A DNA stretch of 64,000 nt from an uncultured Clostridia bacterium (GTDB lineage: Bacteria; Bacillota; Clostridia; Oscillospirales; Ruminococcaceae): contig CANDVA010000004.1 of assembly GCA_947389015.1 (NCBI GenBank), positions 124,001-188,000 on the forward strand, written 5' to 3'. A model generated the notes under the pieces. It had not been told where the DNA came from, did not search any database, and saw nothing but the letters and a program-made list of their open reading frames with translations. Of this stretch, positions 5,639-38,776 are shown in pieces; position 1 is the stretch's first letter; every line of letters begins with the position of its first letter. The position numbers and the translations under genes were made by a program.

Positions 5639-6400
5639 ATGATAACGGACAGCTTTGACAGCAAATCAAAAGCGATAATAAACCCGTATGTAAACGAAAA
5701 CGCGCCTACGGTCGACGCATGTATACTTACATTCTCTAACAAGATAGAGAATGCGGTGTTACGTAATTACGAGTGCAAGGAGATCGGGCGCTTTAACTGC
5801 GCAACGCGTGAAACTCCCGTTTATCTGCTCGAACGGAACGGAAAAAGATTTGCGTTTTTCCTAACGATGATCGGCGCTCCCGCCTGCGTGGGAACGATCG
5901 AGGACTCGTTCGCCGTGATAAAAACGAAAAGATATGTCGTATTCGGCGGCGCGGGGTGTCTTGATAAGGAGATAGCTCACGGAAAGGTGATGATACCGAC
6001 CGAAGCGTACCGCGACGAGGGCACTTCCTACCACTATGCTCCCCCGTCCGACTATATCGAGGTGAAGAATTCCGCGACTGTCGCACGGTTTATGGAGGAT
6101 AACGGAATACCATACATTATGGGAAAAACGTGGACTACCGACGCTTTTTACAGGGAAACGGAGGATAATTTCCGTAAGCGCAAGGCGGACGGATGTATTT
6201 CCGTGGAAATGGAGTGCGCAGCGCTTCAGGCAATGTGCAACTTTCGAGGAATAGAATTGTACACGTTCTTTACGAGCGGCGACCTCCTTGACGCTCCGAA
6301 ATGGGATCCGCGGCATAAAAAGGGCGAGATAGAGAACACTCAACACGATTCGGGACATTTTGATATCGCACTGGCACTGGCGGAGTATATCAGCGGGTGA
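5639..6400 (+). CDS. Nucleoside phosphorylase (PNP/UdP family)
   Basis: RBS aaaggag; VVFGGAGCLDKEIAHGKVMIPTEAYRDEGTSYHY...SVEMECAALQAMCNFRG. Confidence 0.88.
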   Translation: MITDSFDSKSKAIINPYVNENAPTVDACILTFSNKIENAVLRNYECKEIGRFNCATRETPVYLLERNGKRFAFFLTMIGAPACVGTIEDSFAVIKTKRYVVFGGAGCLDKEIAHGKVMIPTEAYRDEGTSYHYAPPSDYIEVKNSATVARFMEDNGIPYIMGKTWTTDAFYRETEDNFRKRKADGCISVEMECAALQAMCNFRGIELYTFFTSGDLLDAPKWDPRHKKGEIENTQHDSGHFDIALALAEYISG

Positions 6401-30165: not shown

Positions 30166-30372
30166 TCAGAAATAGAACAGCTCCTCAAACTTCTTGTCAA
30201 GCGCTATGCACAGTATAAGCGCGAGCTTTGCGGTCGGGTTGAACTGACCCGTCTCAATGGAGCTTATCGTGTTGCGCGAAACGCCCACCGCCTCGGCAAG
30301 CCCGGTCTGCGACATCCCCTTTTCGGCTCGGGCTTGCTTGAGATTGTTTTTCAGTATCAACTTATCTTCCAT
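30166..30372 (-). CDS. XRE-family HTH regulator
   Basis: NLKQARAEKGMSQTGLAEAVGVSRNTISSIETGQFNPTAKLALILCIALDKKFEELFYF. Confidence 0.93.
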   Translation of the reverse strand: MEDKLILKNNLKQARAEKGMSQTGLAEAVGVSRNTISSIETGQFNPTAKLALILCIALDKKFEELFYF

Positions 30373-30688
30373 TCCACACCCCGAAAAATTCGGCGAAATA
30401 GAGCAGAGTAAACATCACTCCCGCAATGCCGAAGGCTATGCCTTGGAAAAAGTAAAGATAGCTCTTGACTTTCGAGCATCGATAAAAGCTGCCTACGGAG
30501 ATCGCGAGATTTATCGTTGCAATATGATCCCAGACGGACTGACCTTGCACAAAGCGGGTAAACGAAAATACGATACAGCACACGATAAGCACAACGATTA
30601 TCCACAGCATAGATTTATCGTTGAAATGCTGCTCCATTTCGTCAGACTGCTCCGCTCTCGCCTTTTCGAGTATTTCTTCCTTTTTCAT
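30362..30688 (-). CDS. Small 2-4 TM protein, paralog 3 (DUF6442-like)
   Basis: MKKEEILEKARAEQSDEMEQHFNDKSMLW...; shares its N-terminus with the next two genes; overlaps the XRE gene start. Confidence 0.75.
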   Translation of the reverse strand: MKKEEILEKARAEQSDEMEQHFNDKSMLWIIVVLIVCCIVFSFTRFVQGQSVWDHIATINLAISVGSFYRCSKVKSYLYFFQGIAFGIAGVMFTLLYFAEFFGVWNGR

Positions 30689-30698
30689 ATTGCCCTCC

Positions 30699-31004
30699 TT
30701 AACAGTCCATAAAGAACATTACCGCGGCAATAATACCCGACGCGAGCAGTACGATACCCGCGACAAGACACCATTTTTCCTTTGTCTTGACAAATCGGTA
30801 AATATTCCCCGCCGCCGCGGAAAGACATACGACCGAGCTCAAGTCCGCCGCATACATATCGCGGATACTTCTCACTATCATAAATATTCCCGCCGTCAGC
30901 GCCATTACAAAATAAGTCCATCTTGTCGATCTGTCGCTAATAAATACCTCGCGCTCGTCCACCTTTTCAGCTTGCGCCTTTGCCAGAATTTCTTCCTTTT
31001 TCAT
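30699..31004 (-). CDS. Small membrane protein, paralog 2 (DUF6442-like)
   Basis: MKKEEILAKAQAEKVDEREVFISDRSTRWTYFVMAL... Confidence 0.75.
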   Translation of the reverse strand: MKKEEILAKAQAEKVDEREVFISDRSTRWTYFVMALTAGIFMIVRSIRDMYAADLSSVVCLSAAAGNIYRFVKTKEKWCLVAGIVLLASGIIAAVMFFMDC

Positions 31005-31014
31005 ATTGCCCTCC

Positions 31015-31317
31015 TTAATACCCCATAAAAAATCTTACCGTCGCAAATACTGTCATTGCCGAAAGCACTATACCCAATATCAGCCAGCTGAGTTCTTTCA
31101 GCCTTATAAAGCGGTATATGCAGCACACCGCCGTGGAAAAGCAGACCGTCGCCGTGAGATCCATTATCGGCTCGCCCTCTCCGCGCATACACACGAAAAA
31201 GCCCGCTGCGACCGTCATCGCGATTGTCATCCAGATCGCCGATCTGTCGCGCACGGCGTTCTTCATCTCGTCCTTTTTCTCCGACCTTGCCTTTTCAAGA
31301 ATTTCTTCCTTTTTCAT
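31015..31317 (-). CDS. Small membrane protein, paralog 1 (DUF6442-like)
   Basis: MKKEEILEKARSEKKDEMKNAVRDRSAIWMTIAMTV...; SD taggaggtgccggtATG. Confidence 0.75.
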   Translation of the reverse strand: MKKEEILEKARSEKKDEMKNAVRDRSAIWMTIAMTVAAGFFVCMRGEGEPIMDLTATVCFSTAVCCIYRFIRLKELSWLILGIVLSAMTVFATVRFFMGY

Positions 31318-31340
31318 ACCGGCACCTCCTAAGGATTTTG

Positions 31341-31412
31341 CCAAGTTTACTTGGTAATCTCATTATAGCACTGCCAAGTTTACTTGTCAAGAGCTTTGCC
31401 AAGTTTTCTTGG
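31341..31412. promoter_or_regulatory. Triple operator array overlapping a sigmaA promoter (minus strand)
   Basis: CCAAGTTTACTTGG (31341-31354), CCAAGTTTACTTGT (31374-31387), CCAAGTTTTCTTGG (31399-31412). Minus-strand promoter TTGACA (31390-31385), 17 bp, TATAAT (31367-31362). Confidence 0.85.
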
Positions 31413-33963: not shown

Positions 33964-33992
33964 TTGACAAGGAAGTCCAAATATGTTATGAT
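33964..33992 (+). promoter_or_regulatory. sigmaA-like promoter of LysR/methylase-like pair
   Basis: TTGACA (33964-33969), 17 bp, TATGAT (33987-33992). Confidence 0.65.
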
Positions 33993-34030
33993 TGTATTAA
34001 CCAAAAGTTAAAAGAAAGGACGACCCGCCA

Positions 34031-34921
34031 ATGTACAACTATATGCTTGAGACCTTTGTCGCCGTGGCTGAAAGCGGCAGCTTTTCAAAGGCGGCTGAGC
34101 GGATGTTTATGTCGCCTACCGCCGTTATGAAGCAGATAAACTCGCTGGAAAAGCATTTTGACCTGAGGCTGTTTGAGCGAAGACCGTCCGGTATAAGGCT
34201 CACAAGCTCGGGCGCGGTCATTCTGCGCGACGCGAGACTTATCATCAACTTTTCGCAGAAATCCGTCGCCGAGGCAAAGCGAGCAGAACGCTCCGCCGAC
34301 AATATATTCTGCGTGGGGTCGTCGCTTCTTAACCCCGCAAAGCCGTTCTTTGATCTGTGGTACAAGCTTAACAGCAGCTTCTCCGACTTTAAGCTGAACG
34401 TCGTTCCGTTTAACGATAACTGCGACGGGATATTGTCCGAGATATCGGCTCTGGGTGAGAAATTCGATTTTCTTGTGGGCGTATGCGACTCTAAAACATG
34501 GCTTAACCGCTGCAATATGCTGGAATTGGGACATTACAGAAAAATGGTCGCCGTGCCGAGAGAGCACAGGCTCGCCCAAAAAGACATTATCGAGATCGAA
34601 GACCTGTACGGAGAAACTCTTATGATGGTCAAGCGCGGCGACTCGGGACTGAACGATTTCCTGCGAAACGATCTGGAACGCTTTCACCCCGAGATAAAAA
34701 TAGAAAGCACACAGCAGTTCTACGACCTTTCGGTATTCAACCGCTGCATTAAAACAGGCTGCGTTCTACTGACCATAGAGTGCTGGCGCGACGTTCACCC
34801 CGGAATAGTCACGATACCCGTAAACTGGGATTACACCATCCCCTACGGACTGCTGTACAGTCTTAAGCCCTCGGAAAACGTGCAAAGATTTCTTGACGCC
34901 GCAAAAAATCTTCGGCAATAA
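34031..34921 (+). CDS. LysR-family transcriptional regulator
   Basis: MLETFVAVAESGSFSKAAERMFMSPTAVMKQINSLEKHFDLRLFERRPSGIRLTSSGAVIL. Confidence 0.92.
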   Translation: MYNYMLETFVAVAESGSFSKAAERMFMSPTAVMKQINSLEKHFDLRLFERRPSGIRLTSSGAVILRDARLIINFSQKSVAEAKRAERSADNIFCVGSSLLNPAKPFFDLWYKLNSSFSDFKLNVVPFNDNCDGILSEISALGEKFDFLVGVCDSKTWLNRCNMLELGHYRKMVAVPREHRLAQKDIIEIEDLYGETLMMVKRGDSGLNDFLRNDLERFHPEIKIESTQQFYDLSVFNRCIKTGCVLLTIECWRDVHPGIVTIPVNWDYTIPYGLLYSLKPSENVQRFLDAAKNLRQ

Positions 34922-34938
34922 CGCGAAAGGATACACCT

Positions 34939-37683
34939 ATGAAAGATCACACACGAAACTACATACGAAACTATATCATCACCGCTGCCGACGAATGTCT
35001 GAACAGCGTTTTTCTGCGCGGACAATACGGTAAGGTGATACTGCCGATGACGTTTATAGCAAGGCTGGACGCCGTTCTTGAGAATACAAAGCACGAGGTT
35101 CTTGCCGCCGCCAAAGTCACGGACGACTGGACAAAGCTTTGCGCGGCTGCCTGTCAGCCGTTCTGCAACAGGTCTCCTCTCGACCTTAAGGCTGTCGTGC
35201 AAAGCGGCGACAGCAAGATATTAAAATTACGTTTTACGGAGTACCTCAACGGATTTTCACCGAATGTCACGGAAATTCTGGAGTTATTCGGCTTTGGCGC
35301 GGTCATTGATAAAATGTCGGAAACAGGAGCACTGCACGGACTTATTGATAAATTCACATCTAAATGGATAGGACTCACGCCTAACCCCACCTACAAAAAC
35401 TCAGCGCGCACGGAGGAGCTTTTCCCGGGTCTTGGCAGCCGCGAGATGAGCGAGCTTTTTACGGAGCTTGCCGGATTGCTGGACGAAAATGTCATAGAGG
35501 GGCAAACTCCGAACGACGTGTCAAAGCTTATGGCGGATCTGGTTTTCGCGCCCGTTGCCGACAGGATAGAGGACGGAGAATATTCCGTTTATGACGGGGC
35601 ATGCGCGCTCGGAGAGCTTCTCGCCGCCTCGGACGAGCGTCTGCGCGGTCTTTCCGAAGACAGGAACATTTCAACGCATATTTACGGGCAAGAGGCTAAT
35701 CCCGAATTTTACGCGGTCTGCAAGGCGGCGTTCCTGCTGAACGCCGAAAACACCGCCGCTGATATTACGTTCGGCTCGGCGCTTTCCGCGGACGGCAACA
35801 CCGAGAGCAAGTTCGATTTTATGATCTCATGTCCGCCGCACGGTAAAAGCTGGAAAGCGGATTTCGACAAGATGAGCGTCGACGGACGGGTCAACGACGA
35901 TAGATTTGTCGACCGCGGCAAGCAGCCCGTAAATCTGATCCCGGGCACACGTGACGGTCAGCTGATGTATCTGCTCAACAACGTATCGAAAATGAAAGAA
36001 ACTCCGCTCGGCAGCAGGATAGTCGAGGTACACGGCGGCTCGCTGCTGTCCACGGGCATCGCGGGGAGCGCGGAGAGCAACGCGCGGAGATATCTTATCG
36101 AGCGCGACCTTATCGAAGCTGTGATCGCGCTGCCGAAAAACATCTTTTACGGCTCGGGGAACTCGGCATTTATCCTCGTGCTCTCCAACCGCAAGGAGGA
36201 GCGCCGCAGAGGGAAAATTCAGCTCATAAACGCGTCGGCTATGAAATCTCAGCTGTACAAGACCATCGGCAGGAAAAACTGCGAGCTCAACGAAAATATC
36301 CGCAGTGAGATACTGCGGATATATACGGATATGGAGGAAAGCGAGGTCAGCCATATTATCGGCGGAGACGAATTCTGCTATTGGGCTGTCGCGGTCGAAA
36401 GCCCCCTTAGGCAAAGAGTGACCGTAAACACCGCCACTATCAAGGAAACGCTGTCGATGTTCAAGACCATGTACGGAGTGGATATCGGTCACGAAAACGA
36501 CAGACTGCCAGAGGTCGCAGCCGCCGATATTTTTAAGTTCACGAGCGCAAATCCCGCAGTGCGCGAGATAAAAACGCCAAAAACGTGGGACGAGGTACAG
36601 TTTGAGCAGGTGTATCACGTGTATATGCGGATATTGCTTGATATGATGCGCGAGGAGCCGTATACGGACTATGATCGCTTTCTGGAGCTGTTCCGCGCTC
36701 ACCCGCTGTACGCGAAAAATTCCGAGCGGTTCAGCGACTACGAAGACTTTATGTATCCTCTACTCGAAAAAGACCCGAACGCCGAAATCGTCACACGCGG
36801 CGGCAAGCCCGTGTCCGATCCCGAGCTCAGGGTCGTGAAGAATATCCCGTTTACATACGCGGGCGGTCCCGACGCGTTTCTGAAAAACGAGATACTGCCG
36901 CACGACCCGTACGCGTGGATAAATCTCGCCGCGACGAGAACAGGCTGCGAGATCAATTTCTCAAAGTTCTTCTTTAAACCGAAAAAGCTGCGTAAGGCAG
37001 ATGTGATCATCAAGGAGATCGGACAGATTGAAAGAGATATCGTTCAGCTGAGGAACGAGCATAACGCCGAGGACATTTGCCGAAGGGTCGAGGAAAGACG
37101 CATCAATGCCGCGAAACGCGAGTTTATCACTCTCGACAACGCGGCATCGGAACAATTTATAAAAAACACGGGATTGGCGGAACGAAACGTTCTCTCGCTT
37201 AGCGACGGAAAGATCGTAAGAAAAGATATAAAGCTCTCCGACGGCGATCTTGCCTCTGCTTACGAGAATTATCAGATCGTATTCCCCGGAAACATTATAC
37301 TGCGGCTTACCGAATTCCGCGGCGGTCAGACGGGAAACCGCATTGGACTTGTGACCGAGCGGGGCATAATCTCCTCGTCGTATGTGTGCTTAAAGGTAAC
37401 GGAAAATATTCTGCCCGAATATCTGTATTTACAACTTCACATCGCCGATATTTCGCACGCTTTTTTCGAGCTTGGAGGAGGACTGCGCAGAAATCTCAGC
37501 TTTAAGGATATTGCGAAAATGACGATAAGCGTTATCCCGCTCGCGGATCAGGAGGCTGTCGTTGAGACCGTCCGCGGAATAACCGAGCCCGTATCGTCCG
37601 CGATCGAAAAGCTGAACGCGGCTGCGGCGGCGTTAAAGGAGCTTGAAAACTCGCTTATTGCCGAGACTATCGGGGATCTCTGA
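34939..37683 (+). CDS. Solitary HsdM-like (type I N6-adenine methylase) protein with degenerate catalytic motifs and S-subunit-like C-terminus
   Basis: HsdM_N-like VFLRGQYGKVILPMTFIARLDAVLENTK; altered motif I VYDGACALGELLA; altered motif IV DFMISCPPHGKSWKAD; LPHDPYAWINLAATRTGCEINFSKFFFKP; TRD-like C-terminus GGGLRRNLSFKDIAKMTISVIPLADQEAVVETV. Confidence 0.82.
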   Translation: MKDHTRNYIRNYIITAADECLNSVFLRGQYGKVILPMTFIARLDAVLENTKHEVLAAAKVTDDWTKLCAAACQPFCNRSPLDLKAVVQSGDSKILKLRFTEYLNGFSPNVTEILELFGFGAVIDKMSETGALHGLIDKFTSKWIGLTPNPTYKNSARTEELFPGLGSREMSELFTELAGLLDENVIEGQTPNDVSKLMADLVFAPVADRIEDGEYSVYDGACALGELLAASDERLRGLSEDRNISTHIYGQEANPEFYAVCKAAFLLNAENTAADITFGSALSADGNTESKFDFMISCPPHGKSWKADFDKMSVDGRVNDDRFVDRGKQPVNLIPGTRDGQLMYLLNNVSKMKETPLGSRIVEVHGGSLLSTGIAGSAESNARRYLIERDLIEAVIALPKNIFYGSGNSAFILVLSNRKEERRRGKIQLINASAMKSQLYKTIGRKNCELNENIRSEILRIYTDMEESEVSHIIGGDEFCYWAVAVESPLRQRVTVNTATIKETLSMFKTMYGVDIGHENDRLPEVAAADIFKFTSANPAVREIKTPKTWDEVQFEQVYHVYMRILLDMMREEPYTDYDRFLELFRAHPLYAKNSERFSDYEDFMYPLLEKDPNAEIVTRGGKPVSDPELRVVKNIPFTYAGGPDAFLKNEILPHDPYAWINLAATRTGCEINFSKFFFKPKKLRKADVIIKEIGQIERDIVQLRNEHNAEDICRRVEERRINAAKREFITLDNAASEQFIKNTGLAERNVLSLSDGKIVRKDIKLSDGDLASAYENYQIVFPGNIILRLTEFRGGQTGNRIGLVTERGIISSSYVCLKVTENILPEYLYLQLHIADISHAFFELGGGLRRNLSFKDIAKMTISVIPLADQEAVVETVRGITEPVSSAIEKLNAAAAALKELENSLIAETIGDL

Positions 37684-38776
37684 TCCATGCGTAGTCTTCC
37701 GCAAAATATCCGAGACCCGAAACGCCGCTGAAGCTGCTGTCCGAAACGTGACCTATCACATCGCCCGCCGAAACGACATCTCCTCTTTCCGCGTGCGGGA
37801 GAGTGCTGTCAAGATGATAATATGTGGTCTCTATACCGGGCTCATGGCTTATCTCAATGAGCAACCCGAAACCGTTTCCATAATCACAGACATCAACGAC
37901 CTCTCCCGGCGATACCGCATATACCTCCGCTCCGTAAGGCGCGGGGGTTATTTTTTCGTTTCTGGAAAACACTTTTGAGAAATTATCGAACTCAAAATCG
38001 TCTCCCGCGTTGTCAAGCGGCTTTACAAGACCACTGTTTAACCACGCTTCAAAATATTCGGTTTTCTCTTTTAGATACTCCATCGGATCGTAGCGATAGA
38101 CGCCGTAACCGATTGCGGTCTCCGGTTTCGAGTAGTGTACGAAACCGAGACGAATTCCCGCGTAGCCTATTACCTGCCCCGACTTTACCGTGTCTCCGAC
38201 CTTAACGGGTATGCCGCAGTCCTCGTCAAGCGTGGAATAGGCGGTATACAGATCATCTTTATGCTTTATCACCACAGTAAGATCGTCGCTTACGGGAGAA
38301 CTTCCCACACCGACAAATGTTACCTCTCCGTCGGCAACGGCATATACAGCCTCTCCCCTCTTAGCGTCCAGACCCGTTACCGAAGAAGCCCACGGTTCAT
38401 CCAATCCAACCGAAAATTTCTTTCCGGTCATTTGAAGGTAATCGTTGGTACTTATTCTTAACGGCAATACGGGCAGATCGCCCTCCCAGAATGTCGCGGG
38501 ATCGGTCTCGGGGAGCGCAAGCGGGTCACCGATAACTATACCCGCGCTGTCGGATATCTTCGCGGAATTCGGAGTAAATTCATCCATATGCCCGCCGATC
38601 GCCGCAACTCCCGCGAACAGCACCGCAGCGCAAGCAGCACAGGGCAGCGCGTATTTAAGCACCCCGATAAAACCGCGCTTTTTTTCAACGCCAAGCTCGG
38701 GATAGTCCCCGACCGCCTCTATGATATACTTATCATCTGCGTCGTTTAACGAATCAAATAATTGTTTGTTGTTCAT
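37667..38776 (-). CDS. Membrane-anchored protein with anti-sigma-like N-terminus and two LytM/M23-like domains
   Basis: N-terminal cytosolic segment plus TM (LKYALPCAACAAVLFAGVAAI), then two biotin-lipoyl/M23-like repeats (AVADGEVTFVG...GDTVKSGQVIGYAG and AVSPGEVVDVCDYGNGFGLLIEISHEPGIETTYYHLD...GDVVSAGDVIGHV). Confidence 0.75.
   Translation of the reverse strand: MNNKQLFDSLNDADDKYIIEAVGDYPELGVEKKRGFIGVLKYALPCAACAAVLFAGVAAIGGHMDEFTPNSAKISDSAGIVIGDPLALPETDPATFWEGDLPVLPLRISTNDYLQMTGKKFSVGLDEPWASSVTGLDAKRGEAVYAVADGEVTFVGVGSSPVSDDLTVVIKHKDDLYTAYSTLDEDCGIPVKVGDTVKSGQVIGYAGIRLGFVHYSKPETAIGYGVYRYDPMEYLKEKTEYFEAWLNSGLVKPLDNAGDDFEFDNFSKVFSRNEKITPAPYGAEVYAVSPGEVVDVCDYGNGFGLLIEISHEPGIETTYYHLDSTLPHAERGDVVSAGDVIGHVSDSSFSGVSGLGYFAEDYAWIRDPR

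What the first reader, a model, noticed from the sequence alone, without database searches (positions are those of the whole stretch)
34031..37683. LysR followed by a solitary HsdM-S-like fusion with broken methylase motifs
Seen: the 914-aa product has HsdM architecture plus an S-like C-terminal TRD, but motif IV reads DFMISCPPHGKSW instead of NPP[YF] and motif I reads DGACALGELL instead of a D-P-x-x-G-x-G-like loop. No hsdR or separate hsdS is present. A LysR gene ends 17 nt upstream in the same direction. Established: Asn and the aromatic residue of NPPY position the target adenine amine, so methylation is probably lost. Inference: a methylase-derived sequence-specific DNA-binding or regulatory/defence protein, possibly controlled by the LysR ligand.
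Basis: partly seen in the sequence, partly recalled or inferred. Interest (0 to 1): 0.75.

Follow-up and report, generated by a model that had tools for sequence, protein, structure and literature searches.

The report
Domesticated dead DNA methylase–specificity fusion
A Clostridia bacterium keeps a DNA-modifying enzyme whose catalytic pocket was lost long ago but whose DNA-reading part was fused on and preserved by selection, which suggests it now works as a DNA-binding protein rather than as an enzyme.

Summary
The 914-aa product is HsdM_N + N6-MTase + one HsdS half (one TRD and one CR helix), with motif IV CPPH and motif I DGACALGE, 17 nt after a LysR gene. One correction: D-G-A-C is normal in this subfamily (relatives read DGACGTGG); the real motif I change is GTGG to ALGE. 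A third pocket motif, AGEH, is also lost (VIEG).

This is not recent decay. A congener (G323, L003; 65% identical) has the same fusion at the same locus and shares the losses (xIEG, GLGE, CPP). The pair has omega 0.19 (95% CI 0.15-0.23) and no stops; neutral drift would leave about 32 per lineage. The intact relatives (43-51% identical) sit in hsdM-hsdS-hsdR operons with omega 0.02-0.06, so constraint is relaxed but real.

LysR is not a conserved partner. G323 has deleted LysR but kept its promoter, now directly upstream of the fusion. G302 and G326 have the LysR without the fusion.

Most likely: a domesticated pseudo-methyltransferase (M-half-S) that pairs through its CR helix and binds a fixed DNA site without methylating it. 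Loss of methylation about 0.9; retained function about 0.85; DNA-binding mechanism inferred. Only two members were found.

The parts
33964..33992 (+). sigma-70-type promoter TTGACA-17-TATGAT of the LysR / M.S unit
   Evidence: Single match in the window to the pattern shared with the orthologues, 0 in 100 shuffles. Same element upstream of LysR in G302 and G326, and directly upstream of the M.S gene in L003 at 5908-5936.
34031..34921 (+). LysR-family regulator, 296 aa; shares the promoter but is not a conserved partner
   Evidence: Pfam HTH_1 and LysR_substrate. Orthologues in G302 (83%) and G326 (81%) lack the fusion.
34939..37683 (+). pseudo-methyltransferase fusion gene M.S, 914 aa
   Evidence: full-length orthologue L003 6001-8757, 65% identical
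34975..35355 (+). HsdM_N domain (residues 13-139)
   Evidence: Pfam PF12161, E 6e-11
35506..36345 (+). N6-MTase core (residues 190-469)
   Evidence: Pfam PF02384, 118 bits; AlphaFold core mostly pLDDT above 80, best Foldseek hits type I M subunits, E 1e-20
35491..35502 (+). degenerate pocket loop VIEG in place of AGEH (residues 185-188)
   Evidence: 12 intact relatives read AGEH or AGRH; L003 reads FIEG
35593..35616 (+). degenerate motif I DGACALGE (residues 219-226); relatives DGACGTGG
   Evidence: L003 reads DGTCGLGE
35830..35841 (+). degenerate motif IV CPPH (residues 298-301); relatives NPPY/F
   Evidence: L003 reads CPPY
36424..36768 (+). insert (residues 496-610) within the HsdM C-terminal part, shared with sister HsdM L029 and mostly absent from the close ~670-aa relatives
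   Evidence: alignment; tree 82/87
37159..37533 (+). single HsdS target-recognition domain (residues 741-865)
   Evidence: BLAST to HsdS of related operons, up to 52%; AlphaFold half-S model pLDDT 84, Foldseek hits HsdS structures
37534..37680 (+). HsdS conserved-region helix (dimerisation helix; residues 866-914)
   Evidence: long C-terminal helix in model m89cc756b985b; typical HsdS CR sequence
37667..38776 (-). convergent M23 peptidase gene; its 3' end is the shared right border of the M.S gene
   Evidence: Pfam Peptidase_M23; remnant of the same 3' end follows M.S in L003; directly follows LysR in G302

Best explanation
The gene descends from an ordinary type I hsdM-hsdS-hsdR operon of the same family of bacteria. 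The hsdM C-terminus became joined to one HsdS half (one TRD plus its CR helix); the route, probably a deletion of the hsdM stop and TRD1, is inferred. hsdR is absent, and the catalytic pocket was lost before two present-day species split (shown: AGEH, GTGG and NPP replaced in both). The protein has since been kept under purifying selection at one locus, and probably is transcribed from the promoter of the LysR gene (inferred from its conservation). Inferred mechanism: two chains pair through the CR helices, as half-HsdS and engineered M-half-S proteins do, forming a clamp that recognises a bipartite palindromic site by its two identical TRDs. Without a working SAM or base pocket it binds and does not methylate, so it acts as a sequence-specific DNA-binding protein (regulator or roadblock).
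For: Shared losses in window and L003, with intact motifs in 12 relatives. Pair omega 0.19 overall (0.16 in the MTase core, 0.18 in the TRD), 95% CI 0.15-0.23, and no stops, against about 32 stops expected under neutral drift. The two fused proteins form one clade (100/100) nested inside intact HsdMs, with a stem of 1.16 changes per site next to the active-type G327 HsdM. Same locus in both species: promoter match score 75 against a shuffle maximum of 43, M23 3' border score 97 against 30. GC3 64%, like the host, against 48-50% in two intact relatives. Half-S fold confident and HsdS-like; TRD 70% identical between the two species. An engineered M-half-S fusion modifies, and restricts with HsdR, in vivo (PMC6158711). 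The NPP-aromatic and A(G/A)EF residues form the base pocket in a solved type I enzyme (PMC9613975).
Against: No DNA-binding, expression or phenotype data. Constraint is relaxed about 3-8 fold relative to active-type HsdM (0.18 against 0.02-0.06). The TRD recognition loop differs from all relatives (TDLQND -> TEFRGG), so DNA binding might itself be altered or lost. TRD pLDDT is poor in the full-length model. Only two members are known, so omega rests on one pair.
Confidence: 0.5

Rival explanations
1. It is still a methyltransferase, with an unusual pocket (Cys in motif IV) or a new substrate or cofactor.
For: The fold and motifs II and III (GQExNPE, GS.LS.D) are kept, L003 keeps the motif IV Tyr, and the MTase core is among the slowest-evolving parts (omega 0.16).
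Against: Three separate pocket and SAM motifs are changed in the same lineage, including G to E in the SAM loop and loss of the AGE loop. The Asn side chain directly bonds the target amine in the PacII structure.
Confidence: 0.1
2. It is a slowly decaying remnant of a restriction-modification system with no function.
For: Constraint is weaker than in active-type relatives, the stem is long (1.16), and the aromatic of motif IV and a motif I glycine were lost additionally in the window copy.
Against: Open for over 900 codons in two species at dS 1.35; omega well below 1 in all parts; LysR and most of M23 were deleted around it in G323 while it and a promoter stayed. Real decay in the same family looks different: G159 C225 carries an apparently frameshifted hsdM.
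Confidence: 0.1
3. It is a non-catalytic partner or decoy: it heterodimerises with an active HsdM/HsdS, or soaks up DNA-mimic antirestriction proteins (Ocr, ArdA) that would otherwise block the genome's real type I system.
For: The genome keeps one intact type I system (C24: hsdM, hsdS, hsdR), and G323 keeps another type I-like methylase with intact motifs. Type I M subunits are the targets of Ocr and ArdA (complexes 2y7c and 7bto are among the Foldseek hits). A non-catalytic MTase subunit, MTA9, stabilises an active complex (PMC9174199).
Against: The C24 HsdM is only 26% identical over about 250 residues, a different family, so mixed dimers are unlikely. G302 lacks the fusion but has an HsdM. 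Nothing links it to a particular partner.
Confidence: 0.12
4. LysR and the fusion form a ligand-controlled regulatory pair.
For: 17 nt apart on one strand; probable single promoter upstream of LysR.
Against: G323 has no LysR orthologue at the set cut-off and carries the LysR promoter directly before the fusion. G302 and G326 keep the LysR without the fusion.
Confidence: 0.08

Closest known systems
HsdM of type I restriction-modification systems (PADLOC MTase_I PDLC03029 subfamily; G327 HsdM in L049 is the nearest intact one)
   Same: HsdM_N plus N6-MTase plus C-terminal architecture, 49% identical over about 700 residues to L029/L049, shared internal insert
   Different: Pocket motifs AGEH, GTGG and NPPY lost; no hsdR; fused to a half HsdS
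M-half-S single-chain type I methyltransferase (engineered CC398-1 M-half-S fusion, PMC6158711; EcoKI M-S fusion, PMC3510504; natural case found here: G1156, L090 8088-10616 beside hsdR)
   Same: HsdM followed in one chain by one TRD and one CR (EcoKI fusion: full S)
   Different: Those keep the catalytic motifs and have HsdR; this one has neither
Type IIG R-M enzymes (BpuSI-like)
   Same: MTase and TRD in one chain (Foldseek hit 3s1s)
   Different: No N-terminal nuclease domain was found by Pfam; the N-terminus is HsdM_N
Non-catalytic MTase subunits MTA9 and METTL14 (eukaryotic 6mA/m6A complexes)
   Same: Conserved MTase fold whose catalytic and SAM residues are lost but which is kept for a structural or binding role (PMC9174199, for MTA9; METTL14 from general knowledge)
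   Different: Unrelated subfamily; those act beside an active partner, and none was found here
Half-HsdS-like protein Esub1 (PDB 8vsr, 8vsq)
   Same: Half-S fold similar to the C-terminal part
   Different: No methyltransferase part; similarity 19-20% by structure alignment only

Membership tests
Type I restriction-modification system | HsdM with HsdM_N and N6-MTase domains | tested here: met
Type I restriction-modification system | intact SAM motif and (N/D)PP(Y/F/W) catalytic motif | tested here: not met
   DGACALGE and CPPH; AGEH loop also lost
Type I restriction-modification system | HsdS with two TRDs | tested here: not met
   Only one TRD plus one CR fused to HsdM
Type I restriction-modification system | hsdR in the operon | tested here: not met
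   hsdR of the relatives has no tblastn hit in the window or in L003
M-half-S single-chain methyltransferase | HsdM, TRD and CR in one chain | tested here: met
M-half-S single-chain methyltransferase | catalytic motifs present | tested here: not met
   Motifs lost; activity itself needs an assay
M-half-S single-chain methyltransferase | homodimer recognising a bipartite palindrome | not testable with these tools
   CR helix is predicted but no complex was modelled
Orphan (solitary) DNA methyltransferase | methylates DNA without a cognate nuclease | tested here: inconclusive
   No nuclease gene alongside, but the catalytic motifs argue against methylation; no methylome data
Pseudogene / decaying remnant | disrupted frame or omega near 1 | tested here: not met
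   Open frame in both species, omega 0.19, CI 0.15-0.23
LysR-controlled module | conserved LysR neighbour | tested here: not met

The most novel reading that the evidence does not exclude
A type I restriction enzyme has been turned into a bacterial host protein that reads DNA sequence but no longer methylates: a new class of M-half-S DNA-binding regulator, or a decoy that draws off phage DNA-mimic antirestriction proteins.
Probability: 0.35. Interest if true: 0.75.

Novelty: new variant of a known kind. Interest (0 to 1): 0.52.

Why it matters
Bower et al. (PMC6158711) note that dimers of half-HsdS resemble homodimeric transcription factors, with split targets like BmrR's, and they show that M-half-S fusions work. 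This gene is a natural, selection-kept case where the fusion has lost its catalytic motifs and the nuclease, with an intact sister operon in the same genus for comparison. It offers a test of whether restriction enzymes become plain DNA-binding host proteins. It also warns annotators not to predict a methylation motif from an HsdM/HsdS hit alone.

Tried and rejected
Mobile single-gene cassette inserted at different sites in two genomes: my first reading, from the empty LysR-M23 site in G302 and the different neighbours in L003; rejected when the LysR promoter and an M23 3' remnant were found bracketing the gene in L003. Phage or plasmid origin: viral contigs gave nothing, and plasmid and phage records hold only relatives under 60% identical. 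More members of the dead clade: none besides L003 in one scan of genome contigs, all 43 genomes of the genus, and samples of 299 and 398 (family), 394 (order) and 391 (class) genomes. Partner HsdM in the own genome: only a distant one (26%). Literature: no description of a conserved catalytically dead HsdM or M-half-S was found in the open-access library. Discarded: LysR omega values (wrong ORF picked; redone). The full-length AlphaFold model was not used for the TRD (pLDDT under 50).

Full report
Observation. The window (G000:C4:124001-188000) holds a LysR gene at 34031-34921 and, 17 nt on, a 914-codon ORF at 34939-37683. Pfam gives HsdM_N (13-139) and N6_Mtase (190-469). PADLOC gives MTase_I PDLC03029 over residues 4-704 at 517 bits, and HsdS models over about 745-911. 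NCBIfam hsdM is matched far below its cut-off (78 against 243 bits). PDB sequence hits are type I M subunits.

What is broken. Twelve intact relatives were aligned. They read EEAGEHWTPRDV, YDGACGTGGM and NPPY/F at the three sites that form the SAM and target-base pocket (L054 has AGRH; L085 deviates at motif I, DGAAGTLG). The window reads ENVIEGQTPNDV, YDGACALGEL and CPPH; its 65% relative L003 reads ERFIEGQTPKDV, YDGTCGLGEL and CPPY. So the loss of the AGE loop, the T-to-L and G-to-E changes in motif I, and Asn-to-Cys in motif IV are shared, while G-to-A and Tyr-to-His are later changes in the window copy. In PacII, the Asn side chain and the first Pro backbone of NPPY hydrogen-bond the target amine and the AAEF Phe belongs to the aromatic cage (PMC9613975). 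Loss of methylation is therefore very likely, though not assayed.

Of the columns in residues 1-495 that are invariant in the intact set, a third are changed in each dead copy, against 0-19% when each intact protein is left out in turn.

Origin. The intact relatives lie in hsdM-hsdS-hsdR operons. hsdR was confirmed beside eight of them: L051 (the query) and L049, L050, L052, L054, L085, L086 and L090 by tblastn; the window and L003 have no hit. In the tree the two fused proteins form one clade (100/100) inside the intact group, next to the HsdM of G327 (same genus; 82/87), which shares an insert at 496-610. The stem is 1.16 changes per site, against 0.03 for that sister. The long stem could affect placement. 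The C-terminal 175 residues are one TRD with one CR, nearest to a TRD of a related HsdS (52% over 111 residues). An independent M-half-S fusion with intact motifs and an adjacent hsdR exists in the same family (G1156, L089/L090), so fusion alone does not imply inactivity.

Is it kept? Window against L003: dS 1.35, dN 0.25, omega 0.19 (95% CI 0.15-0.23). By part: MTase core 0.16, N-terminus 0.18, TRD 0.18, CR 0.30. A neutral simulation at half that dS gives about 32 stops per lineage; none is present in either copy. Intact pairs of moderate divergence that are not saturated give 0.02-0.06 (one distant pair near saturation gives 0.14), so constraint is relaxed but real. An apparently frameshifted hsdM in G159 (L020) shows what actual decay looks like nearby.

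Locus. G302 has LysR directly beside M23 and sigma with no fusion; G326 has the LysR and no fusion. L003 first looked like another site. But the 29-bp promoter TTGACA-N11-ATATGTTA(T/C)NAT-type element upstream of LysR in G000, G302 and G326 lies directly upstream of the fusion in L003 (alignment score 75, shuffle maximum 43), and a truncated M23 3' end follows the fusion there (97 against 30). So the site is orthologous: G323 deleted LysR and most of M23 and kept the fusion with the promoter. By the GH3 gene, G000, G302 and G323 are about equally distant (dS 0.72-0.91), so whether G302 lost the fusion or never had it is open. GC3 of the fusion (64%) matches the host, unlike two intact relatives (48-50%).

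Structure. AlphaFold with 24 window and locus sequences models the MTase part well, and Foldseek ranks type I M subunits first (E about 1e-20). The TRD in that model is unreliable. A separate model of the half-S part (pLDDT 84) matches HsdS structures including PacII S and EcoKI S, with a long C-terminal helix.

Mechanism. Shown: shared loss of catalytic motifs, retention under purifying selection, one locus, one conserved promoter. Inferred: transcription from that promoter, dimerisation by the CR helix, as half-S proteins and M-half-S fusions are held to do (PMC6158711), and binding of a bipartite palindrome. The TRD loop is changed from the relatives' TDLQND..SLR to TEFR.GQT..R in both copies, which suggests a different target that is the same in both species; it could also mean altered binding. 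Regulator, roadblock or antirestriction decoy cannot be told apart here.

Known or new. It descends from type I HsdM/HsdS but fails three defining features (intact motifs, two-TRD S, hsdR). It is laid out like an M-half-S single-chain enzyme but without the motifs for its activity. No description of a conserved dead version was found in the open library, which is not exhaustive.

Noticed in passing
L090 8088-10616 (-) and 5026-8100 (-) (G1156:C28): Natural single-chain HsdM-half-HsdS fusion (843 aa ORF) with intact DGACGTGG and NPPY, directly beside an hsdR 80% identical to that of three-subunit relatives: a natural counterpart of the engineered M-half-S enzymes.
   Followed up: partly
L053 3210-9813 (G000:C24): The genome's only other N6_Mtase hit: a complete type I system (hsdM with DPACGSG and NPPY, hsdS, hsdR) with a 670-nt gap between hsdM and hsdS.
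   Followed up: no
window 30362-31344 (-): Three tandem paralogous ~105-aa genes (MKKEEILEKAR...); two homologues lie just upstream of the fusion in L003 (one 75% identical), suggesting wider collinearity of the locus.
   Followed up: partly
window 33993-34024: Palindrome-like TTAACCAAAAGTTAA between the -10 element and LysR, kept or nearly so in G302 and G326 but eroded in L003 where LysR is gone: a candidate LysR autoregulatory site.
   Followed up: partly
L020 1405-3188 (G159:C225): hsdM split into two overlapping frames, an apparent frameshift: a real decaying type I methylase in the same family.
   Followed up: no
model m89cc756b985b (window residues 696-914) against PDB 8vsr/8vsq: The half-S part resembles Esub1, a half-HsdS-like protein crystallised with Prx; no open paper on Esub1 was found.
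   Followed up: partly
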